In this document: positions 7,452 to 20,028 of the stretch, one piece after another | Layout of the letters: the number at the start of each line of letters is the position of its first letter | How positions within the stretch are numbered: the stretch's first letter is position 1 | DNA from: Methylococcaceae bacterium | Lineage (GTDB): Bacteria; Pseudomonadota; Gammaproteobacteria; Methylococcales; Methylomonadaceae | Assembly (NCBI GenBank): GCA_024636875.1 | Contig: JAGXGJ010000051.1 | Coordinates: 1-38,431, forward strand | Length of the DNA: 38,431 nucleotides | Direction of reading: 5' to 3' | Translations under genes and position numbers: made by a program | The notes under the pieces: generated by a model | Database searches by the model: none | The model's input: only the letters and a program-made list of their open reading frames with translations | What the model was told of the DNA's origin: nothing

Positions 7452-10400
7452 ATGGAAATAAGGGAGCTGTTCACCAAGCCTATTGACCGCCCGATCAATG
7501 GAGTCATCAAGGCCGACCAATTAGATGCTGAAAGTGTCTGGCAGGAATTGGAAGAGTACGTTGTCACCAAACAGCTCACCGAATATTTTCGGAAGTTTTT
7601 CGATGCTTATCTGGCAGCCGCAGAACAGCCCAAAGACTCGACTATTACAGCACGCATGGGCGTCTGGGTATCCGGATTCTTCGGCTCAGGAAAATCACAT
7701 TACATCAAAATACTGTCCTACTTGCTGGAAAATATTGAGGCCATTGACCCCAAAACCGGCAACCCTAAAAAAGCGGCTGATTTTTTTGACGAACACAAAA
7801 TCAAAGACCCGCTGCTGTTGGCTGACATCCACAAAGCCATTAAAGGTACTGCTGATGTCATCCTGTTTAATATCGATGCCAAGGCCGATGCAAAATCCGA
7901 CCGCGATGCCATCGTCCAGGTGTTTCTGCGGGTGTTTAACGAAAAGCAGGGACTTTGTGGTGATGCGCCCCATATTGCCGAAATGGAGCGTTATCTGATT
8001 GCCAAAGGCGCTTACGATACTTTCAAAACAATCTTTCAGGCTCGAAACGGCAATACCTGGCAACAAGAGCGTGATGCCGTGGATTTCCTGCGTGATGAGG
8101 TGATTGCCGCCTTGGCACAAGCACTCAACATGACTGAAGAATCGGCTGGACGTTGGTTTGATAACGCCCGTGATGATTACCGTATCAACATCGAAGGCTT
8201 GGCAAAACTGGTGCGTGATTATCTGGACACCAAACCCGCCGGTCATCGACTTATTTTTTTGGCTGATGAAGTTGGACAGTTTATCGGTGATAACACCCAA
8301 CTCATGTTGAGCCTGCAAACCATCGTTGAACAGTTGGGTACACTGTGCCAGGGACGCGCCTGGGTTATTGTCACCAGCCAGGAAGATATTGATGCCGCCA
8401 TTGGTGAGACCAACAAGGCTAAATCTCAGGACTTCTCCAAAATTCAAGGCCGTTTCCATACCCGGCTGTCTTTGTCCGGAGCCAATACTGACGAGGTCAT
8501 AGGCCAGCGCTTGCTGGCTAAAACTGAGCAAGCCCATGTTGCGTTAAGGGATGTATTTGCTCAAAAGGGCGACATCATAAACAACCAGCTGTCCTTTCTT
8601 GGCAATGCTGTCAATCTTCGTGGTTACCGGGATGCCGCCGAATTTGTGGCCTATTATCCGTTTACCCCTTATCAATTTCAATTGCTGCAAAAAATCTTCG
8701 AATCGATTCGCAAAGTCGGGGCAACTGGCCAACATTTATCGCGTGGTGAACGCTCCTTACTGAATGCCTTCCAGTCAGCTGCCGTACAAAATGCCGGCAA
8801 GCCCATTAATACCTTAATACCTCTCTATGATTTTTATCCGTCCATCGACAGCTTTATTGATAGCGTCGCCAAGAGATCAATTGATCAAGCCCCCTACAAC
8901 GAAGCTCTGGAACCCTACGATACCCTGTTACTTAAGGCTTTATTCCTGATTCGCTACATTTCCGAAACCATCAAGCCTACCATCGACAATCTGGCAACCC
9001 TCTGTGTTGATGAAGTGGATGCCGATAAACTCAGTCTTAAGCGCCGAATTCAGGAATCTTTAGCCAGACTGGAACAACAACAATTAGTTAGCCGTAACGG
9101 TGATCACTGGTTTTTCCTGACCAATGAAGAACGCGATGTTGCCAGAGAGTTGGGGCATGTGGACGTTTCATCAGCGGAAAGAACACGTTTGCTGTCTGAG
9201 CTGGTTTTTGAAGACATCCTCAGAGGGCAAACCAAAGTCAGGCATCGTAACACCAAAGGAGACTACGACTTTAACCGCCTGCTTGATGGTGCGCCGTGGA
9301 AAACGGCTAATCATACGCTAACGCTGGAAATCCTCAGCCCCTTGGGTGATGACTACGAACGGATGCACGAGGCCACTTGCATCATGCGCAGTAGCGAGTC
9401 AACGGGTCGAGCGATCATCCGCATGGCAGAAGGCCAACGGCTCTACGAAGAACTCACGCTTTATCTGCAAATTGAAAAATACATCATCAGTCCTAAAGCC
9501 GGACAGGCAACGCCGTCATTAAAACGTATCCTGGCTGACCGTAAAGAAGAAAACCGTGATCGAAAACTGCGTTTGGTCGAACAACTCAGCCATCTGATGA
9601 CCACTGGAGATTTTTATGTGTTGGGGCAAAAGCCCGGCATTAAAGCCGGATTGCATCCGGCCAGCCTGCTGGATGAAGTAGTCAATTATTTAATTGCCAA
9701 CACCTACAGTAAACTGCCTTATCTTAAATACCGCACACCAGACCCCATTGCAGAAATCAAAGCCGTTCTTTCCGGCGGTGATATTAAGCCGCTCTTGCAA
9801 GACACCCGGAACGAAGAACTTAACCCACTGGCAGTCAACGAACTGCGTCAATACCTGTTACTGGCAGCCTCAGAAAAGCGCGTGTTATTGTCCGATATAA
9901 TCGACCGATTTACCGGTATTCCCTGGGGCTGGAAACCGGAATGGGAAATTGTCTTGCTGCTTGCCAAGCTTTATATGGCCGGTGAGATTAAATTGATGCT
10001 CGAAGGCGCTGACATTGAACCAAAAGCTGCCATAGACCCCTTAACCAAATCGGTTCGATTTAAACAGGTTTCCCTACTCAAACGCAAACAACCACCTCCC
10101 GAATTGCTCAAACGCGCACGGGAATTGCACCGTGAACTGTTTGCCAAATTACCCAGAGAAGAGGAAGACGGCTTAATTACCGATACGCGTGACAGTTTCA
10201 CTACGTGGCAAAATGAACTTAAAAACTACAGTCATGCCGCAACCAGTAAATATTACCCCGGCAAAACAGTGATTGACCAAGCCATTAACCGCATTGGTAA
10301 ACAACTGGCTATTCGGGACAGTTACGAATTCATTGAAACCTTGCTTGCAGGCAAAGACGACTGGTTAGACCTGAGTGATGAGATTCACGATGTCATTAGC

Positions 10401-11045
10401 TTCTATAAAACCCAAATAACCACCTGGCAACGGCTGTTGGAGGCCATGACTGCCTTTACCGACAACCACGAAGCCCTGCAACAGGACATTAACGCCGCCA
10501 ATGCCCTCAAGGAATTAATAGCCATTCGAGATAATCCTGCGCCCTACAGTCAAATTAACCGTATTGATCCATTATTAAATACCGTTGAAACCGTTAACGA
10601 ACACCTGGCAGCCACTGAAAGAGAAATCGCGTTACTAGCCATTGAGCAGAAACTGGCCGAAATTGAAACAGCACTGGATCACGTTAAAGCCAATGCTGAC
10701 TTACGCAATAAAGCCTTGCACCCCATGCAGCAACTCAAAATCAGTATTGCCGGACTAAGCAGTATTCCCCAAATCCGCTACTTGGCTGAACGGGCAGGAA
10801 CTCATTTAGATACAGCAATGGATAATATTGCTGCTGCGCAAAAACAGCCTACTCCCGGCATCAAAGAACCTGGCGCTGGCAATACGGGTACGACGCCACA
10901 AAAACCCGTTAAAGTGATTCGCGCCCAAGAGCTAAGCAACAAAACTTATCTGGAGACAGAAGACGAAGTCGATGCTTACCTGACCAAGTTAAGGAAGGCC
11001 TTAGTAGCCGTCCTGCAAGAAGGCAAAAAAGCCCGGATTCAATAA
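7452..11045 (+). CDS. brxC: BREX P-loop ATPase BrxC (PglY-like)
   Basis: 1197 aa; [23 protein letters not shown] Walker A; position after brxB. Confidence 0.95.
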   Translation: [1197 protein letters not shown]

Positions 11046-11084
11046 CTTTACTTTGTCAGATTACATGATCATTTTTCCCAAGAT

Positions 11085-11181
11085 CGTCATTCCGGCAGGG
11101 ATTGCCGGAATCCAAGGCCCATGGATGGATTTAAGCTTGCCATCCATGGCGATGGATGCCCGCTTCCCGGCGGGCATGACG
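11085..11181. repeat. dispersed-type palindromic repeat CGTCATTCCGGCAGGGATTGCCGGAATCC...GGATGCCCGCTTCCCGGCGGGCATGACG
   Basis: Complementary termini plus internal hairpins (CCATGGATGG/CCATCCATGG; CCCGCTTCCCGGCGGG). Confidence 0.8.
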
Positions 11182-11296
11182 AGCTTGCGGATAATCTAGA
11201 AAAGTGGAATGAAAAGAGTTAAACACTCTAAACGTTGAACTTGAACATTCTAAAGCGGATAATTTGTTGAAAATTTCAACAACTGAGGAGACAATC

Positions 11297-11530
11297 ATGG
11301 CTACTGTCAATTTCAGCGTCCCTGACGATGTTAAAGAAGCGTTTAATATCGCTTACCAAGGACAAAACAAGAGTGCCGTTATTGCCGAACTGATGCGCGA
11401 AGCAGTTGAACGTGCCCAGCGCAAACAACGCAGTCACGATGCGATTGCAGGTATACTGGAACGGCGCAAGCATGCTCCGGCAATCACCGAAGAAGAATTT
11501 CGTGCAGCACGGGAAGAAGGCCGTCCATGA
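11297..11530 (+). CDS. ribbon-helix-helix-like antitoxin (VapB-type)
   Basis: MATVNFSVPDDVKEAFNIAYQGQNKSAVIAELMREAVE; overlaps the start of a PIN toxin. Confidence 0.8.
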   Translation: MATVNFSVPDDVKEAFNIAYQGQNKSAVIAELMREAVERAQRKQRSHDAIAGILERRKHAPAITEEEFRAAREEGRP

Positions 11531-11949
11531 TTTTGGTGGTCGATGCTAGCGTAGCAATTAAATGGTTCTTTCAGAACCGGGATAATGAAACTGATTGCGA
11601 CTTGGCATTGACCATTTTGGAAAGTGTGGACGCGGGGCGAATCCAACTGGTACAACCGCCGCATTTTATTGCGGAAGTGGCAGCTGTACTTGCCCGCGAA
11701 AAGCCCGGTGAAGCCCAAGATGATCTATCTGATTTGTTGTGCGTCGAATGTCACATCACCCAAGAGCCAGAGATTTATACAACAGCAATCGATCTCTCCA
11801 TTCGTTATCGGCATCATTTGTTCGATACCTTATACCACGCCGTTGCCTTACACACACCCGGCTCAAAATTCATTACTGCCGATGATGCTTACTACCGCAA
11901 AGCACAAGGCATGGGTCATATTGTTCGTTTGCAGGATTATGCTATATGA
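11527..11949 (+). CDS. PIN domain toxin (VapC-type), apparently intact
   Basis: MILVVDASVAIKWF, HHLFDTLYHAVAL, FITADDAYYRKAQ acidic PIN motifs. Confidence 0.87.
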   Translation: MILVVDASVAIKWFFQNRDNETDCDLALTILESVDAGRIQLVQPPHFIAEVAAVLAREKPGEAQDDLSDLLCVECHITQEPEIYTTAIDLSIRYRHHLFDTLYHAVALHTPGSKFITADDAYYRKAQGMGHIVRLQDYAI

Positions 11950-11996
11950 ACAAAGCCAAATTCAAATCCTGCGCCTCACAATCATGCAAAGATTAA
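11946..11996 (+). pseudogene. degenerate duplicate of the pglX 5' end (MNKAKFKSCASQSCKD*)
   Basis: In-frame alignment with the true pglX start at 12416 (MNKAKLKAYAPQARKD); shares ATGA with the vapC stop. Confidence 0.82.
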
Positions 11997-12010
11997 CTGG
12001 AGAAATCGCC

Positions 12011-12238
12011 ATGAACCCGGAAAGACTCGTTTTCAATGATACTCCGGCATTCATTCCGGTACCGGAAGCGCTGCAACATCGCAAAGTTGAAGTAATCCTT
12101 TGTCCATTGGATGAGGACGCCGAGATCGTCGAAGCGCCAACATCCACATGGACAGATTTTTTCAAGCAATTCAGCCGTCAGGTTGACGATGCAACGCCTT
12201 GTGCGCGGGAAGAATTGTATGCCGACCGTTTGCGTTGA
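12011..12238 (+). CDS. antitoxin-like protein of the TPAFIPVP..QHRK family
   Basis: MNPERLVFNDTPAFIPVPEALQHRKVEVILCPLDED; paralogous to 14244..14603, which precedes a PIN gene. Confidence 0.72.
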   Translation: MNPERLVFNDTPAFIPVPEALQHRKVEVILCPLDEDAEIVEAPTSTWTDFFKQFSRQVDDATPCAREELYADRLR

Positions 12239-12407
12239 TACCAACATCTGGATTTATGCGCTCAGTGTCCCAAGTGCTGGAGATTTAAGTAAACATCAAC
12301 TTGCACAAAGTAGCATTCAGACTGCCGGAAAAATCACCCTTACGGCGCAAACTATCAAGCATCAACAACAGATTGACGGCCTTCGCATCATTAACCCTTT
12401 TAAATAA
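12219..12407 (+). pseudogene. internally deleted PIN toxin remnant
   Basis: MPTVCVDTNIWIYALS is a PIN N-terminus; only 62 aa, ending LRIINPFK; the central PIN motifs are missing. Confidence 0.7.
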
Positions 12408-12415
12408 AATCACGG

Positions 12416-13360
12416 ATGAACAAAGCCAAACTCAAAGCCTACGCCCCACAAGCCCGTAAAGACTTTATTGCTGCGGTTACTGCCCGTGCCCATCGCATCG
12501 GACTGGCAGAAAAGAACGGTTCTGTGGCGATTGAGCCCGCCGAAAAGAGTGGTGATTTCGTCATCATTGCCGGACAGTCCTGGCCTGCCAAGATCAGCCA
12601 GCAGCGCGATAACCTGATTGCCCTTATTGAGAAAGATGGCTTTAGCCAAACCATGGAAGCGGTGGCTTACACCTGGTTCAACCGCTTTGCCGCATTGCGT
12701 TATATGGAAATCCACGATTACCTCGGCCACGGTTATCGGGTGCTTTCCAGTCGAGAAGGCGGCTTGCCGGAAATACTAAACGCTGCGCCGGAATTGGCAC
12801 AAAACCGCGAACTCCCAGATCTTAATCCGCAACAGGTCATTGAACTCAAACTGGCCGGTGATCAAGACGGCGAACTGTATCGCTTAACGCTGATTGCTCA
12901 ATGTAATGCCCTGTCCAAGGTCATGCCATTTCTGTTTGAACGCATCGACAATGAAACCGAACTGCTACTGCCCGATAATTTATTGCTGACCGATTCAGTT
13001 ATCGCCAAACTGGTCACAGCAATCCCGGAAGAAGACTGGAGCCAGGTAGAAATCATCGGCTGGCTGTATCAATTTTACATCAGCGAGAAAAAGGATCAGG
13101 TCATCGGCAAGGTGGTTAAGTCTGAAGATATTCCCGCCGCCACCCAGCTGTTTACGCCGAACTGGATTGTAAAATACCTGGTGCAAAACAGCATCGGGCG
13201 TTTGTGGTTGATGGCAAAACCAACGTCTGATTTGAAAAATCAATGGGAATACTACATTGAACCTGCCGAGCAAACGCCTGAAGTACAAGCGCAATTAGAC
13301 GCGCTTATTGCCGCGCGAATCGCGGAAGACGAAAAAACAAATTTGAAAAGGAGTGATTGA
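12416..13360 (+). CDS. pglX: BREX PglX, N-terminal fragment (314 aa) ending just before MTase motif I
   Basis: MNKAKLKAYAPQARKDFIAAVTARAHRIGL...RFAALRYMEIHDYL...TQLFTPNWIVKYLVQNSIGRLWL; continues logically into 15040..18141. Confidence 0.92.
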   Translation: MNKAKLKAYAPQARKDFIAAVTARAHRIGLAEKNGSVAIEPAEKSGDFVIIAGQSWPAKISQQRDNLIALIEKDGFSQTMEAVAYTWFNRFAALRYMEIHDYLGHGYRVLSSREGGLPEILNAAPELAQNRELPDLNPQQVIELKLAGDQDGELYRLTLIAQCNALSKVMPFLFERIDNETELLLPDNLLLTDSVIAKLVTAIPEEDWSQVEIIGWLYQFYISEKKDQVIGKVVKSEDIPAATQLFTPNWIVKYLVQNSIGRLWLMAKPTSDLKNQWEYYIEPAEQTPEVQAQLDALIAARIAEDEKTNLKRSD

Positions 13361-13363
13361 TAA

Positions 13364-13539
13364 ATGCCTGAAATATGTCGTTTTCTTGGAATAGTGATTA
13401 GCAAACTCTTAACGTCATTGATGGACATCTACCCGCAAAAGTGCGAGGTTTGGTTGAAGAATGGGCGGAATTACATCAACTTGAATTGATGACAATGTGG
13501 GATACCAAAGAATTTCATAAACTTAACCCTTTAGTTTAG
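13364..13539 (+). pseudogene. DUF4160-like toxin remnant with internal deletion and frameshift
   Basis: MPEICRFLGIVI followed in another frame by LNVIDGHLPAKVRGLVEEWAELHQLELMTMWDTKEFHKLNPLV*; next gene is DUF2442, the usual partner. Confidence 0.75.
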
Positions 13540-13548
13540 GCAAAAATA

Positions 13549-13815
13549 ATGATAGCAATTACAGAAGCGAACTACCAAAGTGGTTACCAAATTAAATTGA
13601 AGTTCAACACAGGTGAAGAAGGCGTGGTCGATTTGTTGGATCTTATCGAACGTTACAATGTTGCTGCGCCTTTAAAAAATGTGCGCGAATTTCAACAATT
13701 TTATCTTGATGAATGGCCGACGCTTGCCTGGTCATGCGGGTTTGATGTCGCTCCTGAAACGCTCTATGAACGAGCCACAGGCAACAGAGTGCCTTGGTGT
13801 GAAACACAAGATTAG
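13549..13815 (+). CDS. DUF2442 family protein (putative antitoxin partner of DUF4160)
   Basis: ITEANYQSGYQIKLKFNTGEEGVVDLLDLIE...WPTLAWSCGFDVAPETLYE. Confidence 0.82.
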   Translation: MIAITEANYQSGYQIKLKFNTGEEGVVDLLDLIERYNVAAPLKNVREFQQFYLDEWPTLAWSCGFDVAPETLYERATGNRVPWCETQD

Positions 13816-13824
13816 GAAAAACCC

Positions 13825-14055
13825 ATGCTGACAATAGAACTAGACAACGAAACCGAGCATGCCTTGCAAGAGCTGGCGCTACAGCAAGGTAAAACGTCGG
13901 AACAATGGTTAAAAGAAGTCACTGACCAATTCGTTCAAGTACAAACTCGCCGACAAGAATTTCCCGACCTTACAGAATTTCACAAGACTTTACCGATGCA
14001 AGAAGTCAGTGCAGGGGAGTTTTGCCATGCGATGCGTGACGGAGATCGCTACTAA
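13825..14055 (+). CDS. antitoxin-like protein
   Basis: MLTIELDNETEHALQELALQQGKTSEQWLKEV RHH-like N-terminus; stop is immediately followed by a PIN-like start (MQYVDTSAALA). Confidence 0.68.
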   Translation: MLTIELDNETEHALQELALQQGKTSEQWLKEVTDQFVQVQTRRQEFPDLTEFHKTLPMQEVSAGEFCHAMRDGDRY

Positions 14056-14087
14056 TGCAATATGTAGACACCAGCGCTGCGCTGGCT
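14055..14087 (+). pseudogene. N-terminal stub of a PIN toxin (MQYVDTSAALA) interrupted by repeats
   Basis: PIN-type start sequence directly after an antitoxin; sequence then becomes palindromic repeat. Confidence 0.55.
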
Positions 14088-14215
14088 CCCAAGCTCCTGC
14101 CTGGGAACCCAGATAGCGAAGCTCTTGCTTCGCGAGACAAGAAGCTAGAGCTTCTTGCACCGAATTCCCAAGCTGGAGCTTGGGAACTAGCAAGCTGGAG
14201 CTTGGGAACTAGCAA
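14088..14215. repeat. cluster of palindromic repeats around (T)TCCCAAGCTggAGCTTGGGAA, including a perfect 22-bp tandem duplication CAAGCTGGAGCTTGGGAACTAG x2 (14169-14190, 14191-14212)
   Basis: Direct reading. Confidence 0.85.
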
Positions 14216-14243
14216 AACTACTACTAGCCAAGAGGACATAATC

Positions 14244-14603
14244 ATGGACCACGCCCGGTTAATTTATGAAGACACACCCGCTTTTATTCCCGTACCAAAA
14301 GAAATGCAACACCGCAAAACAGAAATTACTTTTTTGCCGATGGATGATGAACTGGCACCAGAATCATCCACTACACCACAAACCACAGTAGAGCCAAGTA
14401 AATCATCTGCACTACATCCAGTCGAGTTAGCTGAAGTCAGAGACGTACTATTGTCTGATGAGTTTTTTGCATCTTTAGAAAAGGTAGAAACCAAAAACCC
14501 AAGATCACTGTTGGAACTCATCGGCAAAGGTCAAGGTTGTTTTAAAAATGCAGCTGAAGTTGACGCGTTTATCCGTGCGGAGCGTGATGCGTGGGACAAT
14601 TAA
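14244..14603 (+). CDS. antitoxin-like protein of the TPAFIPVP..QHRK family
   Basis: MDHARLIYEDTPAFIPVPKEMQHRKTEITFLPMDDE; overlaps the downstream PIN gene. Confidence 0.75.
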   Translation: MDHARLIYEDTPAFIPVPKEMQHRKTEITFLPMDDELAPESSTTPQTTVEPSKSSALHPVELAEVRDVLLSDEFFASLEKVETKNPRSLLELIGKGQGCFKNAAEVDAFIRAERDAWDN

Positions 14604-15046
14604 GGCAAGCCTTGCAAGGGCGGAATGTTTATTTAGATGCCAACATTTTTATTTATACCCTCGAAGGAATGGAGCCTTGGGCTAATTTATTATCAGACGT
14701 TTTCGCGGGTTTAACCACAGGTGAATTGTCGGCTGTTACCTGCAGTTTAAGTTTGTCTGAATGTTTGGTAATGCCATTTAAGCAAAACAAAAATGATTTA
14801 GTCGCCGTTTATCGTGAGGCACTCTTACCTGGTCATTATTTAACGATTGCGCCTATTGATGACAGAGTATTAATCTCAGCCGCAAACATTCGCGCCCAAA
14901 CCGGTTTAAAACTTCCCGATGCCATTCACGCCGCGACAGCCTTAATGCAACAATGCACAGCACAGCTCACCAACGACACAGGCTTTAGCCGCGTACCGGG
15001 CATCGAATTGTTTTTATTGTCTAACTGGATTTCCTCACCATGCTAA
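14591..15046 (+). CDS. PIN domain toxin, apparently intact
   Basis: VYLDANIFIYTLEGME, LSLSECLVMPFK, TGLKLPDAIHAATAL, LTNDTGFSRVPGIEL. Confidence 0.86.
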   Translation: MGQLRQALQGRNVYLDANIFIYTLEGMEPWANLLSDVFAGLTTGELSAVTCSLSLSECLVMPFKQNKNDLVAVYREALLPGHYLTIAPIDDRVLISAANIRAQTGLKLPDAIHAATALMQQCTAQLTNDTGFSRVPGIELFLLSNWISSPC

Positions 15047-18000
15047 ACCCCGAAACCATCACCGTCCTGGATCCCGCTTGTGGTTCGGGACATATCCTGG
15101 TGGAAGCCTATGAGGTGTTGAAGGCAATTTACCTGGAGCGTGGTTACCGGATGCGCGATATTCCGCGCCTGATTCTGGAAAAGAATCTTTATGGCCTGGA
15201 CATCGACGAACGCGCCGCGCAATTGGCAGGTTTTGCGTTATTGATGAAAGCTCGTGCCGATGATAGGCGGTTGCTGGATAATCCGCCCAAGCTCAACGTG
15301 CTGGCTTTGCAGGAAAGTCCTAAAGCAGTTGAGGGACAAGGGTTTAGGGGCGAGGGGTTAGGCACGAGTGATTTTGACGCATTGTTGCCATTTCTAAGCC
15401 CTCGTCCCTCGTCCCTCGTCCCTAATCCCTATAACCTCATCCCTATCTTGCTGGACACCTTTGCACATGCTAAAACCTTCGGCTCACTGATTCAAATTCC
15501 ATCCGATTTGAATGCGCAACTGCCAGCGATGGACGCCGGTTTGCAGTTGGCCATTCAGAGTGGCGACCTGCTTGCTCAAGAAGCGGCATTAAATCTGTTG
15601 CCTTTGGTGCGGCAGGCGCGGATTTTGGGGATGCAGTTTGATGCAGTAGTGGCGAATCCGCCATATATGGGCGGCAAGGGGATGAATCCGGCGTTGAAGG
15701 ATTATGCTAAACGTGAGTTTCCTGATAGTAAATCTGATTTGTTTGCCATGTTTATAGAGCGCGGATTTGAGTGGTGCAAATCGTCTGGCTTTAACAGCAT
15801 GGTGACTATGCAGAGCTGGATGTTTTTGTCGTCGTTTGAGGCGATGCGAGAAAAATTATTGAAAGAACGAACGCTATCGTGCATGGTTCACATGGGAAAT
15901 GGCGTGATGGGCATTGCTTTTGGAACTGCCGCGACAATTTTTATTAATAAGCATATAAATGACTACGCGGGAAATTTTTCATATTGCGATAATAGCGATT
16001 TAAATGTGCAAAATATACCTTCGCATTTCCCTGTTCAAAATGAACGATTAAAAATTGCTAAGCCAGATGACTTCAAAAATATTCCAGGTAGTCCAGTTGC
16101 ATACTGGATTTCTCAAAACATAAGGGAAACTTTCAAGTTTGGAAAAATTTCGAAGTATGCTGAGCCGGCGGGGCGGTGCAAAACCACACAAGATGATCTC
16201 TATGTGAGGAATGTGTGGGAAGTAAATTCTAAAATGGTTAATGACAAATGGAAGTTTTTATTTAAGGGTGGTAAATCGGTTAAGTATTATGGCAATAAAG
16301 ATTACGTTATAGACTGGTCGCCAGAAGCAAGGTTTTTTTATAGTAGAACTGGAGGCTTGCCTCATGAAAGATATTGGGGAAAAGAAGGTTTAACTTGGAC
16401 TTTTGCAACATCTAGTGAGACTCTCGCTTTCAGATTTAAAGATCAATCCTCTCAATATAGTACGGTCTCCCCAACAATAGTATTTACCGATTCATCAAAA
16501 TTATTTGTGTCGTTATGTCTTTTGAATAGTATTGTTGCAGATAAGCTACTCAAGATACTTAACCCTACGCTTGGACTTAACATTGGAGATGTTTTAAACA
16601 TTCCAATTGACAATATCAGCCAAGACGATTTCAAACTTCTTGAAAAGAATGGAACTGAATTAACTGATATAGCCAAACTTAACTGGGATTCTTATGAAAC
16701 TTCGTGGAGCTTTTTAACAAACCCACTTATCAGCACTCAGCAAAAAACATTAAAAGCTTGTTATTTGCAATGGCAAACGCTAAATAGCCAATCCTTCGCA
16801 AAAATGCAAAGTATTGAAGAAGCAAATAATCGCCTCTTCATTAAAGCCTACGGCCTGCAAGTCGAACTCTCACCCGAAGTTCCCGAAGAGCAAATCACCC
16901 TCGCCCGCGCCGACCGTGAAAAAGACAGCCAACGGCTTATTTCCTATGCCATCGGCTGCATGATGGGGCGTTACCGGCTGGATAAGCCGGGGTTAATTTA
17001 TGCACATGCGGGGAATGTTGATTTCAACAAAATTTATAACGGAGGGAATAGGGATGAGGGACGAGGGGCGAGTGAAATGTTACCAAGACCTGATTGTTTG
17101 GCAGAAAGCAATGGAGTTGGTCGAGCTAGTGTATCGAATGACCAAAGTATTTCCGAACGAGGAACGCTATGGATTAAGCAGCCAGATTCAACGGGCGGCG
17201 GTGTCGATACCCTCGAATATCGCGGAGGGACATGCGAGACAGAGCCGTGCAGAATACCGGAATTTTCTATCCATCGCACAGGGTTCGAGAGCGGAAGTGG
17301 AGACTCAAACGCTGATAGCAGTACGTTTAGGTTATGTAACAGCAGCCCAGACCAAGGAAATAATGTCCTTGCTAGAAGAACTATCGAAAATGCTCAATGC
17401 ACTGAGAACCAAACTAACCTCTCATCCCTAAACCCTAATCCCTTCCTTCCTGACGCCGACGGCATTGTGCCGGTTACCGATGAACTCTGGTTTGAAGACG
17501 ACGCCGCCAACCGTATCGATGAGTTTTTGCAGGCGGCTTTTTTAGGGGTGAGGGATGAGGGGTTAGTGGCTAGGGAACAGGGTTTAGAGGGCAATGAAAC
17601 ATTGGCTACCCCCTCGCCCCTAACCCCTAATCCCTCTAACCTACAATGGCTGGCAGAAAGCCTAGGTCAAAAAGGCAATGAAACCCCACAGGAGACCATT
17701 CGCCGCTATATTGCCGGCAGCTTTTTCAAAGATCACCTGCAAACCTACAAAAAACGCCCGATTTATTGGTTGTTCTCCAGCGGTAAACAAGGTGCATTTC
17801 AGGCCTTGGTTTACTTGCACCGTTACAATGAAAGCACACTCGCCAGAATGCGCGCCGAATATGTCGTGCCTCTCACCGGCAAAATCCAGTCCCGCATCGA
17901 GATGCTGGAAAAAGATGCCGCTGCCGCCTCATCCAACGCAGCCCGCAGCAAGTTGAACAAGGACATCGAAAAGCTCAAGAAAAAACACGTCGAACTCCTC

Positions 18001-18141
18001 GCCTACGACGAAAAACTCCGCCATTACGCCGACCTACGCATCCAGCTCGACCTGGATGACGGCGTAAAAGTAAACTACGGCAAGTTTGGCGATTTACTGG
18101 CGGAAGTGAAGGCGGTGACCGGAGGTACAGGCAATGATTGA
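15040..18141 (+). CDS. pglX: BREX PglX, C-terminal methyltransferase fragment (1033 aa) with three in-frame inserted elements
   Basis: VLDPACGSGHILVEAYEVL motif I, AVVANPPYMGGKG motif IV; ATGCTAA overlap with upstream PIN stop. Confidence 0.93.
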   Translation: MLNPETITVLDPACGSGHILVEAYEVLKAIYLERGYRMRDIPRLILEKNLYGLDIDERAAQLAGFALLMKARADDRRLLDNPPKLNVLALQESPKAVEGQGFRGEGLGTSDFDALLPFLSPRPSSLVPNPYNLIPILLDTFAHAKTFGSLIQIPSDLNAQLPAMDAGLQLAIQSGDLLAQEAALNLLPLVRQARILGMQFDAVVANPPYMGGKGMNPALKDYAKREFPDSKSDLFAMFIERGFEWCKSSGFNSMVTMQSWMFLSSFEAMREKLLKERTLSCMVHMGNGVMGIAFGTAATIFINKHINDYAGNFSYCDNSDLNVQNIPSHFPVQNERLKIAKPDDFKNIPGSPVAYWISQNIRETFKFGKISKYAEPAGRCKTTQDDLYVRNVWEVNSKMVNDKWKFLFKGGKSVKYYGNKDYVIDWSPEARFFYSRTGGLPHERYWGKEGLTWTFATSSETLAFRFKDQSSQYSTVSPTIVFTDSSKLFVSLCLLNSIVADKLLKILNPTLGLNIGDVLNIPIDNISQDDFKLLEKNGTELTDIAKLNWDSYETSWSFLTNPLISTQQKTLKACYLQWQTLNSQSFAKMQSIEEANNRLFIKAYGLQVELSPEVPEEQITLARADREKDSQRLISYAIGCMMGRYRLDKPGLIYAHAGNVDFNKIYNGGNRDEGRGASEMLPRPDCLAESNGVGRASVSNDQSISERGTLWIKQPDSTGGGVDTLEYRGGTCETEPCRIPEFSIHRTGFESGSGDSNADSSTFRLCNSSPDQGNNVLARRTIENAQCTENQTNLSSLNPNPFLPDADGIVPVTDELWFEDDAANRIDEFLQAAFLGVRDEGLVAREQGLEGNETLATPSPLTPNPSNLQWLAESLGQKGNETPQETIRRYIAGSFFKDHLQTYKKRPIYWLFSSGKQGAFQALVYLHRYNESTLARMRAEYVVPLTGKIQSRIEMLEKDAAAASSNAARSKLNKDIEKLKKKHVELLAYDEKLRHYADLRIQLDLDDGVKVNYGKFGDLLAEVKAVTGGTGND
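15331..15438 (+). mobile_element. small G-rich/C-rich inverted-repeat element inserted in-frame in pglX (insertion A)
   Basis: Left GAGGGACAAGGGTTTAGGGGCGAGGGGTTAGG; right CCCTCGTCCCTCGTCCCTCGTCCCTAATCCCTATAACCTC; encodes low-complexity VEGQGFRGEGLG...LSPRPSSLVPNPYNLIP. Confidence 0.72.
17041..17449 (+). mobile_element. intervening-sequence-like element carrying an S23/four-helix-bundle gene, inserted in-frame in pglX (insertion B)
   Basis: Left end GGAGGGAATAGGGATGAGGGACGAGGGGCGAG, right end CCTCTCATCCCTAAACCCTAATCCCTTCCTT (imperfect inverted repeats); interrupts the pglX sequence between GLIYAHAGN.. and DADGIVPVTDELWFEDDA. Confidence 0.82.
17054..17431 (+). CDS. four helix bundle protein (S23 / 23S rRNA intervening-sequence protein family), nested in pglX in another frame
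   Basis: CYQDLIVWQKAMELVELVYRMTKVFPNEERYGLSSQIQRAAVSIPSNIAEGHARQSRAEYRNFLSIAQGSRAEVETQTLIAVRLGYV is diagnostic of the family. Confidence 0.92.
   Translation: MRDEGRVKCYQDLIVWQKAMELVELVYRMTKVFPNEERYGLSSQIQRAAVSIPSNIAEGHARQSRAEYRNFLSIAQGSRAEVETQTLIAVRLGYVTAAQTKEIMSLLEELSKMLNALRTKLTSHP
17542..17640 (+). mobile_element. small G-rich/C-rich inverted-repeat element inserted in-frame in pglX (insertion C)
   Basis: TTAGGGGTGAGGGATGAGGGGTTAG ... CTACCCCCTCGCCCCTAACCCCTAATCCCTCTAA; encodes LGVRDEGLVAREQGLEGNETLATPSPLTPNPSN between conserved pglX segments. Confidence 0.78.
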
Positions 18142-19297
18142 AAAAATCCAAATCAAAAACTTTAAGTCGTTAGGCGATGAAGTTAGTTTGCCAATGGCAA
18201 AATTCAATTGCCTAATCGGCATGAATGGTTCTGGCAAAAGCACAGTGCTACAAGCACTTGATTTCATTTCTCAGATTATGATCGGTCACGTTCAAGAATG
18301 GCTGGATAGCCGCAGCTGGACCATCCATGATCTGAGCAGCAAGTTGCGTAAAGAGAGATATATTCTCCTTGCTGTACACTTTAAAACCTCAGACGGGCAA
18401 AAACTGATGTGGCATGGGTTTTTTAATAGGAATGAATTGCGATGCACCGGCGAGTTAGTCAAACTGAATGGAGATAAAATTTTTGAATCGGACGGGCGGC
18501 ATTTCCGACTCGAAGCGCAGCCCTGGCAAGGAATTGCCTTTAATTATCAAGGCTCTTTACTTTCTGTGTTGAAGGACTCCGAATTGTCTGTACCGGTACT
18601 GGAATTCCGTGATGCAATGCGGCGCATACGCTCGCTGGAGCTGCTTTCACCGCAACTAATGCGTAAAAGCGCACGTATTAACGATGTGGATATCGGCGCA
18701 GGTGGGGAAAAATTGGCTGGTTACTTGCACGGTATCAAAGGGGAGACCAGAAAAAAATTGGTCGAGTTGTTGAAAGCTTTTTATCCCAAACTCGAAGATT
18801 TCAAGGTGACAAATCAGCGTGCCGGTTGGAAAAAGTTATCGGTAATCGAACAATATGAAGGGCATCGCTTGGAAACGGAAGCCACACATCTCAGCGATGG
18901 CTTATTGCGGATTCTTGCCGTCCTTGCGCAATCGGGTTCTGATCGTTCATTGATCTTGCTCGATGAAATCGAGAATGGTATTAATCAGGAAATCATCGAA
19001 AAACTGGTTGATACCTTGGTAACCAGTCCGCAACAGATACTGGTCACCACCCATAGTCCATTGATTCTGAATTTTCTTGATGACGAAGTGGCACGCGAGG
19101 CGGTTCAGTTCATCTACAAGACACCGCAGGGTGAATCGCGCATACGGCCTTTCTTTGAGATTCCTCGCATCGGCGAGAAGCTGAGTTATATGGGTCCGGG
19201 TGATGCCTTTGTGGATACCAATCTGGAAGCTTTGACAGAAGAATGTATCGAATTGGATCGTTCCGACAAAAGCCCCCGTTTGGAAGAAATTGAATGA
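18134..19297 (+). CDS. AAA/ABC-type ATPase (AAA_21/AAA_15, OLD/RecF-like)
   Basis: KIQIKNFKSLGDEVSLPMAKFNCLIGMNGSGKSTVLQAL; LSDGLLRILAVLA; LILLDEIENGI; ILVTTHSPLILNF. Confidence 0.9.
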   Translation: MIEKIQIKNFKSLGDEVSLPMAKFNCLIGMNGSGKSTVLQALDFISQIMIGHVQEWLDSRSWTIHDLSSKLRKERYILLAVHFKTSDGQKLMWHGFFNRNELRCTGELVKLNGDKIFESDGRHFRLEAQPWQGIAFNYQGSLLSVLKDSELSVPVLEFRDAMRRIRSLELLSPQLMRKSARINDVDIGAGGEKLAGYLHGIKGETRKKLVELLKAFYPKLEDFKVTNQRAGWKKLSVIEQYEGHRLETEATHLSDGLLRILAVLAQSGSDRSLILLDEIENGINQEIIEKLVDTLVTSPQQILVTTHSPLILNFLDDEVAREAVQFIYKTPQGESRIRPFFEIPRIGEKLSYMGPGDAFVDTNLEALTEECIELDRSDKSPRLEEIE

Positions 19298-20028
19298 TAT
19301 TGGTGTTAAGTGGAGAAGGTCCAACTGATTTAGGCTCTTGCACCAATTCTCTCGGACAATGTTGCGGCGATGACTTAGCCATCGGGCCTTTAACCGTATT
19401 GATTGACCAAATAATCACCCGATTGCAAGGGCGCTCAGTGTTGGCAAATCGGGATCGGCTTTATTACGTAAGCGAATCAAAACTTCGGGAGCGTGCTAAA
19501 GCACTCCCAGGTCGGCTAAAACCAGCTCGAAGCAAAAAGAGAGAGGCTGAAACAGGCTATTTCTTTGGCAATGCTGTAGCCCTTGGTGTAATTGCAAAAG
19601 AACTTGAGACCGAAACCGGACAAAACGCAATCGCTGTTCTGCACCGTGACTGCGACTCTACACGTTCCGGCCAAGCTGGGATGTGGAAAATTAAACATAA
19701 CTCTATGCTTGATGGATTTAAGTTTACCCGATTTTCACAGGGTGTGCCGATGCTACCCAAGCCAACCTCGGAGGTTTGGTGGCTTTGCGCTGCACAGCAA
19801 CAATCCTATCAGCATTGTTCACAGCTCGAAGATTTGCCCGGCAATCAGGCTTCTCTAAATCATCCAAAGAAAAAACTGGAACAAGTATTTGGCGGACACA
19901 AAACCGCAGCCGAACTTTGCGAATGGCTTGATGAAAATCCTTTTGATTTTGACCGTGCCGAATCAATGCCGAGTTTTAAAGCATTCGAGGTTGAGCTCGA
20001 ACGTGTGGTTAACGAGTTGATACATTAA
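19294..20028 (+). CDS. TOPRIM-like protein (DUF4276-like), partner of the ATPase
   Basis: LVLSGEGPTDLG (acidic TOPRIM-like N-terminal motif), AVLHRDCDSTR (DxD-like), KPTSEVWWLCA; overlaps upstream ATPase by 4 nt. Confidence 0.68.
   Translation: MILVLSGEGPTDLGSCTNSLGQCCGDDLAIGPLTVLIDQIITRLQGRSVLANRDRLYYVSESKLRERAKALPGRLKPARSKKREAETGYFFGNAVALGVIAKELETETGQNAIAVLHRDCDSTRSGQAGMWKIKHNSMLDGFKFTRFSQGVPMLPKPTSEVWWLCAAQQQSYQHCSQLEDLPGNQASLNHPKKKLEQVFGGHKTAAELCEWLDENPFDFDRAESMPSFKAFEVELERVVNELIH

What the first reader, a model, noticed from the sequence alone, without database searches (positions are those of the whole stretch)
11946..11996. Degenerate duplicate of the pglX start forms a 16-codon leader ORF overlapping the vapC stop
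Seen: 11946 ATGAACAAAGCCAAATTCAAATCCTGCGCCTCACAA... translates as MNKAKFKSCASQSCKD*, aligning in frame to the true pglX start at 12416 (MNKAKLKAYAPQARKD). The second TA remnant lies between the two. Its ATG is fused to the VapC stop (ATGA). Inference: the scar records an insertion/recombination in which the second module was placed after the original pglX 5' end, or a partial duplication during cassette acquisition. It could also act as an upstream ORF controlling re-initiation.
Basis: seen in the sequence. Interest (0 to 1): 0.78.

Follow-up and report, generated by a model that had tools for sequence, protein, structure and literature searches.

The report
Recombination scar before split pglX
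A decayed 47-base copy of the start of the BREX methyltransferase gene pglX lies between two toxin-antitoxin cassettes; comparison with relatives shows it is a scar left when one cassette was added to a locus that already held another, and similar scars recur in unrelated BREX loci.

Summary
In detail: 11946-11992 matches the pglX start at 12416-12462 at 39/47 bases; 2000 shuffles of the brxC-pglX interval gave at most 29.

Relatives supply the intermediates. In seven loci vapBC1 runs straight into pglX through the same ATGA/GTGA overlap. In two (L100, L009) module 2, with an intact PIN toxin gene, sits directly before pglX; L100 has the window's module-2/pglX junction. The window and two other genomes (G033, G203) carry both cassettes with the 47-nt stub between them, ending at one shared breakpoint.

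So the stub is the footprint of additive cassette acquisition, most simply one homologous and one illegitimate joint. It evolves like junk (pN/pS about 0.8 against 0.17 for real pglX starts), which argues against a selected leader peptide.

The process recurs: seven independent pglX-5' stubs (30-390 nt), one mirror-image brxC-3' stub (L045) and one stub at an intragenic pglX cassette site (L123), each between two stacked cassettes. I found no earlier description in the library searched. Interest is moderate: a fossil record of how BREX loci accumulate embedded cassettes, by a known class of recombination. Which cassette arrived second is unresolved.

The parts
7452..11045 (+). brxC (BREX ATPase), left flank of the cassette interval
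   Evidence: PADLOC BrxC E=0
11297..11530 (+). vapB1-like antitoxin of cassette 1
   Evidence: 98% nt identical to L112/L113, 78-92% in vapBC1-pglX relatives L110, L111, L115, L116, L117, L123; under purifying selection
11527..11949 (+). vapC1 PIN toxin of cassette 1; stop codon overlaps the stub ATG
   Evidence: Pfam PIN E=4.3e-10; conserved directly before pglX in seven relatives
11946..11992 (+). degenerate copy of the first 47 nt of pglX (stub, recombination scar)
   Evidence: 39/47 to 12416-12462; shuffles reach at most 29; same breakpoint in L007/L084/L113 (G033) and L085/L112 (G203)
11988..12010 (+). illegitimate joint: pglX codons 14-16 joined to the upstream region of the module-2 antitoxin; probable TAAA microhomology
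   Evidence: L100 'CCTAAAAATTAATTGGATAAATCGCTATG', window 'GCAAAGATTAACTGGAGAAATCGCCATG', L007 'TGTAAAGATTGATTGGATAAATCGCCATG'
12011..12238 (+). module-2 antitoxin (no Pfam family)
   Evidence: 79% aa identical to L100/L114, 71% to L007/L113; no Pfam hit
12222..12407 (+). module-2 toxin remnant: PIN gene with internal deletion
   Evidence: intact homologue L100:1732-2139 is PIN, E=1.6e-7; window copy keeps only the two ends
12385..12415 (+). module-2/pglX junction shared with module-2-only loci
   Evidence: 97% identical to L114 (same place as L100), 95% over 71% with L120 (sequences)
12416..13360 (+). pglX N-terminal half, with the intact pglX start
   Evidence: PADLOC PglX E=2e-130, profile positions 1-305 of 1174
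15040..18141 (+). pglX C-terminal (methyltransferase) half, separated by a third cassette
   Evidence: PADLOC PglX from profile position 304 onward, E=1.6e-282

Best explanation
The 16-codon ORF is a truncated, decaying copy of the pglX 5' end, left when two cassette-bearing versions of the brxC-pglX interval recombined. One parent was brxC-vapBC1-pglX, with the pglX start overlapping the vapC stop. The other was brxC-module2-pglX. An incoming fragment joined by homologous recombination on one side and, on the other, by an illegitimate joint between pglX codons 14-16 and the region just upstream of the module-2 antitoxin, probably at a TAAA microhomology. The result stacks both cassettes in front of one intact pglX start and leaves a 47-nt stub between them. 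Shown: the stub, both parental arrangements, the shared breakpoint, the neutral-looking decay and the recurrence in other loci. Inferred: the order of arrival, the entry route, the microhomology, and whether the homologous joint lay in pglX (right) or brxC (left). The stub has no selected function that I can detect.
For: (1) Parental states: vapBC1 directly overlapping pglX in L005, L006, L037/L123, L086/L117, L087, L093/L115, L094/L116; module 2 directly before pglX in L100/L114 and L009/L120. (2) The right junction of module 2 with pglX in the window is near-identical to L114 (97%). (3) The left joint is the same in the window, G033 and G203, with shared derived bases (C16T, C39A, C40T) plus private ones. 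(4) Stub pN/pS (uncorrected) is 0.78 and 0.91 against pglX and 0.70 between the two stubs; real pglX starts pooled over 14 loci give 0.058/0.337 = 0.17. (5) Recurrence: independent pglX-5' stubs in L014, L020, L036, L038, L076 and L127, each with a cassette on both sides. (6) Mirror image in L045: a 69-nt brxC-3' copy running to the stop codon, between a PIN cassette and a second cassette. (7) The L076 stub differs from its own pglX mostly synonymously (14 N, 29 S over 105 codons) and matches L069 pglX over its full 390 nt, so it came from another functional allele, not from an in-place tandem duplication.
Against: The direct ancestor and donor are not available; L100 is only about 80% identical. 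The TAAA microhomology is 4 nt and is inferred from a relative. Segment identities do not reveal which side carried the homologous joint. L003/L004 stack vapBC and module 2 with no stub, so stacking does not always leave one. Most are draft genomes or metagenome bins, although the same joint in three genomes makes an assembly error unlikely.
Confidence: 0.85

Rival explanations
1. The stub is a functional leader ORF: ribosomes finishing VapC re-initiate at ATGA, translate 16 codons and stop 14 nt before the module-2 antitoxin, controlling its translation.
For: The ATGA overlap and the stop just upstream of the antitoxin's GGAG and ATG are present. The frame is open in both known versions.
Against: Amino-acid-changing differences dominate (6 N:2 S and 7 N:2 S in codons 2-15); the G033/G203 copy starts with TTG; the overlap and frame are inherited from pglX, and so short a frame can stay open by chance.
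Confidence: 0.06
2. Tandem duplication of the cassette and pglX start in place, followed by divergence or replacement of one cassette, without two parental loci.
For: It would also give a truncated copy upstream of an intact gene.
Against: Cassettes 1 and 2 have different antitoxins and each occurs alone next to pglX in other genomes. In L076 stub and gene are different functional alleles. L045 shows the mirror-image scar.
Confidence: 0.05
3. Target-site duplication made by a mobile element that carries module 2 and inserts at the pglX start.
For: A cassette lies between two direct copies of the target.
Against: Copy lengths differ (30, 47, 64, 78, 88, about 147, about 390 nt), with the left edge at or near the ATG and the right edge variable, and the cassettes are unrelated (PIN, HipBA, AbiE, DUF1016, PLD). 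I saw no recombinase gene in the intervals for which ORFs were listed.
Confidence: 0.03

Closest known systems
Homology-facilitated illegitimate recombination (HFIR) and related single-crossover duplications (PMC3240628 and work cited there)
   Same: One homologous and one illegitimate joint, with 3-10 bp microhomology in most published HFIR joints; in the E. coli assay most integrants had a partial duplication of the target gene (109-950 bp)
   Different: Here it is inferred from sequence only, between natural BREX loci; most duplications are shorter, and the entry route is unknown
Defence genes embedded in BREX loci (PARIS, BrxU, nuclease and PIN effectors: PMC11341690, PMC12839542, PMC8565348)
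   Same: Extra defence or toxin genes sit between BREX core genes; PIN effectors are listed among them
   Different: Those papers catalogue cargo; the passages I read do not describe how it stacks or the truncated pglX/brxC copies left between cassettes
VapBC type II toxin-antitoxin modules
   Same: A small antitoxin gene followed by a PIN-domain toxin
   Different: Cassette 1 is a normal pair by layout; module 2 has lost the middle of its toxin gene

Membership tests
Homology-facilitated illegitimate recombination product | one joint in homologous DNA | tested here: met
   module-2/pglX junction shared with module-2-only L100/L114
Homology-facilitated illegitimate recombination product | other joint illegitimate, usually 3-10 bp microhomology | tested here: inconclusive
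   4-nt TAAA between pglX codons 14-15 and the L100 upstream region; the true donor sequence is unknown
Homology-facilitated illegitimate recombination product | entry as a linear fragment (transformation or conjugation) | not testable with these tools
   no entry route can be read from the sequence
Transposon target-site duplication | constant short direct repeat on both sides of one element with a recombinase or terminal repeats | tested here: not met
   lengths 30-390 nt, unrelated cassettes, no recombinase seen in the intervals listed
Selected leader peptide / uORF | conserved peptide or start codon | tested here: not met
   pN/pS 0.70-0.91 uncorrected; TTG in place of ATG in G033/G203
Selected leader peptide / uORF | effect on downstream translation | not testable with these tools
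   needs Ribo-seq or a reporter
Type I BREX locus | brxA, brxB, brxC, pglX, pglZ, brxL together | tested here: met
   all six hit PADLOC models; pglX is in two pieces

The most novel reading that the evidence does not exclude
The pglX 5' end (and, in mirror image, the brxC 3' end) serves as a recurrent recombination anchor by which BREX loci stack and shed toxin-antitoxin and other cassettes: each stub is a direct repeat that while fresh (as in L127, 97.7% over 88 nt) could let the cassette be excised again, making the interval a reversible cassette array without a dedicated recombinase.
Probability: 0.2. Interest if true: 0.65.

Novelty: new variant of a known kind. Interest (0 to 1): 0.42.

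Why it matters
BREX loci are known to carry embedded defence and toxin genes, but how these accumulate is not explained in the passages I read. The stubs are a readable fossil record: they show that cassettes are added next to existing ones rather than only replacing them, that additions keep an intact pglX start, and that stubs then decay. This makes the stacking process directly testable, in sequence collections and by laboratory transformation.

Tried and rejected
A class-wide search for pglX N-termini found only four distant matches outside the own genome and gave no further stubs. Segment-by-segment identity did not tell which side carried the homologous joint, because brxC, vapBC1 and pglX have different closest relatives. 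Three Pfam calls failed through wrong frames and were repeated. Short brxC-3' matches of 14-25 nt in L006/L111, L021, L033, L039 and L042 were not counted as stubs. Leader-ORF, tandem-duplication and transposon readings were weighed and rejected as above.

Full report
Observation. The window holds a type I BREX locus: brxA 6255, brxB 6848, brxC 7452-11045, pglX in two halves (12416-13360 and 15040-18141), pglZ 20040, brxL 22652; all hit PADLOC models. Between brxC and pglX lie vapB1 (11297-11530), vapC1 (11527-11949, PIN), the 16-codon ORF 11946-11996, an antitoxin ORF 12011-12238, and a PIN remnant 12222-12407. The ORF matches the pglX start at 39/47 bases; the next best place for the 51-mer in 38 kb is 27/51, and shuffles of the interval never exceed 29/47.

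Pre-insertion and single-cassette states. A scan with the PglX N-half gave 80 loci, and family-wide searches gave more. Seven distinct loci have vapBC1 directly before pglX with the vapC stop overlapping the pglX start: L005 (same contig as L089/L110), L006 (L088/L111), L037 (L091/L123), L086/L117, L087, L093/L115 and L094/L116. L100/L114 (G174) and L009/L120 (G203 contig C198) have module 2 with an undeleted PIN toxin gene (Pfam for L100) directly between brxC and pglX, without vapBC1. The window, L007/L084/L113 (G033) and L085/L112 (G203 contig C270) have vapBC1, stub, module-2 antitoxin and pglX in that order; in G033 and G203 the module-2 toxin is replaced by a second antitoxin-like ORF.

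The joints. On the right, the window's module-2 end and pglX start...CCTTTTAAATAAAATCACGG|ATGAACAAAG, is nearly that of L100. On the left, the stub ends in AAAGATTAACTGGAGAAATCGCC-ATG (window) or AAAGATTGATTGGATAAATCGCC-ATG (L007), against CCTAAAAATTAATTGGATAAATCGCT-ATG upstream of the antitoxin in L100 and CGTAAAGACTTT in pglX. The switch lies at TAAA(G/A)A. This is one event shared by three genomes: the two stub versions share C16T, C39A and C40T and have private changes as well. vapB1 is 98% identical between the window and G033/G203, while brxC is 84-86% identical to them and 92-94% to L123, so the block has probably also moved between loci by recombination.

The stub is decaying. Against the window's pglX start, codons 2-15 show 6 N:2 S (window) and 7 N:2 S (L007); real pglX starts of 14 loci pooled show 26.5 N over 456 sites and 44.5 S over 132 sites. 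In L007 the start codon is TTG. There is no sign of a selected peptide, though 14 codons is a small sample.

Recurrence. Six carry a second copy of the pglX 5' end there: L007 (the same event as the window), L014 (AbiEi/AbiEii | stub, 64 nt aligned | HipBA), L020 (PIN pair | stub 147 nt | PLD-like protein), L036 (vapBC-like | stub 78 nt | DUF1016/YhcG nuclease), L038 (HipA | stub 30 nt plus 62 nt upstream | AbiEi/AbiEii) and L076 (ParE-like toxin | stub up to 390 nt | two ORFs without Pfam hits). L127 (G171) adds a fresh one, 97.7% over 88 nt, between two PIN-containing stretches. L014 and L038 carry the same two systems in opposite order. L045 has the mirror image: the last 69 nt of brxC repeated between a PIN cassette and a second cassette. 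In L123 a decayed copy of the 3' end of the pglX N-half (57 nt, 79%) lies between two stacked cassettes at the intragenic site. In L076 stub and gene differ mainly at synonymous sites (14 N, 29 S) and the stub matches L069 over its full length, so two different functional alleles met.

Mechanism. One homologous plus one illegitimate joint explains an intact pglX, a truncated copy with variable right edge, both parental cassettes, and both mirror-image scars. Published HFIR has these joints, usually with 3-10 bp microhomology; in the E. coli conjugation assay of PMC3240628 most integrants instead had a partial duplication of the target gene, attributed to single crossing-over with a recircularised molecule. 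Either route fits here. All stubs found lie between two cassettes; none lies directly after brxC in an otherwise single-cassette locus, which mildly favours entry with the homologous joint in brxC, but the numbers are small.

Literature. PMC11341690 reports that about 7000 of about 9000 genomes with co-located pglZ and pglX have genes between BREX components; PMC12839542 lists nuclease and PIN effectors embedded in BREX loci. In the searches made and passages read I found no account of these stubs; the library lacks most subscription papers.

Limits. No experiment was run; direction and route are inferred; most genomes are drafts. The verdict is a well-supported, mostly ordinary recombination scar with an interesting recurrent pattern.

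Noticed in passing
window 13361-15046: pglX is split by a third cassette (DUF2442 13549-13815, a RelB-like ORF, an antitoxin ORF, a PIN toxin 14591-15046); the C-half ATG overlaps the PIN stop (ATGCTAA). L005, L006, L008, L022 and L037 are interrupted at about the same point, with other or diverged inserts. The N-half of the window and L110 is under strong purifying selection (ratio 0.084), so the split protein may still work.
   Followed up: partly
window 17000-17428: A 23S_rRNA_IVP (S23-like) ORF, Pfam E=1.4e-42, lies inside the pglX C-half in another frame; the pglX frame reads through it.
   Followed up: partly
window 18134-20028: An AAA_21-type ATPase gene and a 244-aa ORF without Pfam hit lie between pglX and pglZ; possibly a PARIS-like pair, not tested.
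   Followed up: partly
window 11060-11230 and 14081-14210: Palindromic repeat-like stretches: CATTCCGGCAGGGATTGCCGGAATCC between brxC and vapB1, and an array of TCCCAAGCTGGAGCTTGGGAAC in the third cassette.
   Followed up: no
L127:2150-2380: A fragment of the pglX 3' end (window C-half residues 964-1031) lies inside the stacked cassettes of G171.
   Followed up: no
G203 contigs C270, C137, C198 (L112, L119, L120): One genome holds three pglX-containing BREX contigs, one with the stub arrangement and one with module 2 alone, so recombination between co-resident loci is possible, unless the bin is mixed.
   Followed up: partly
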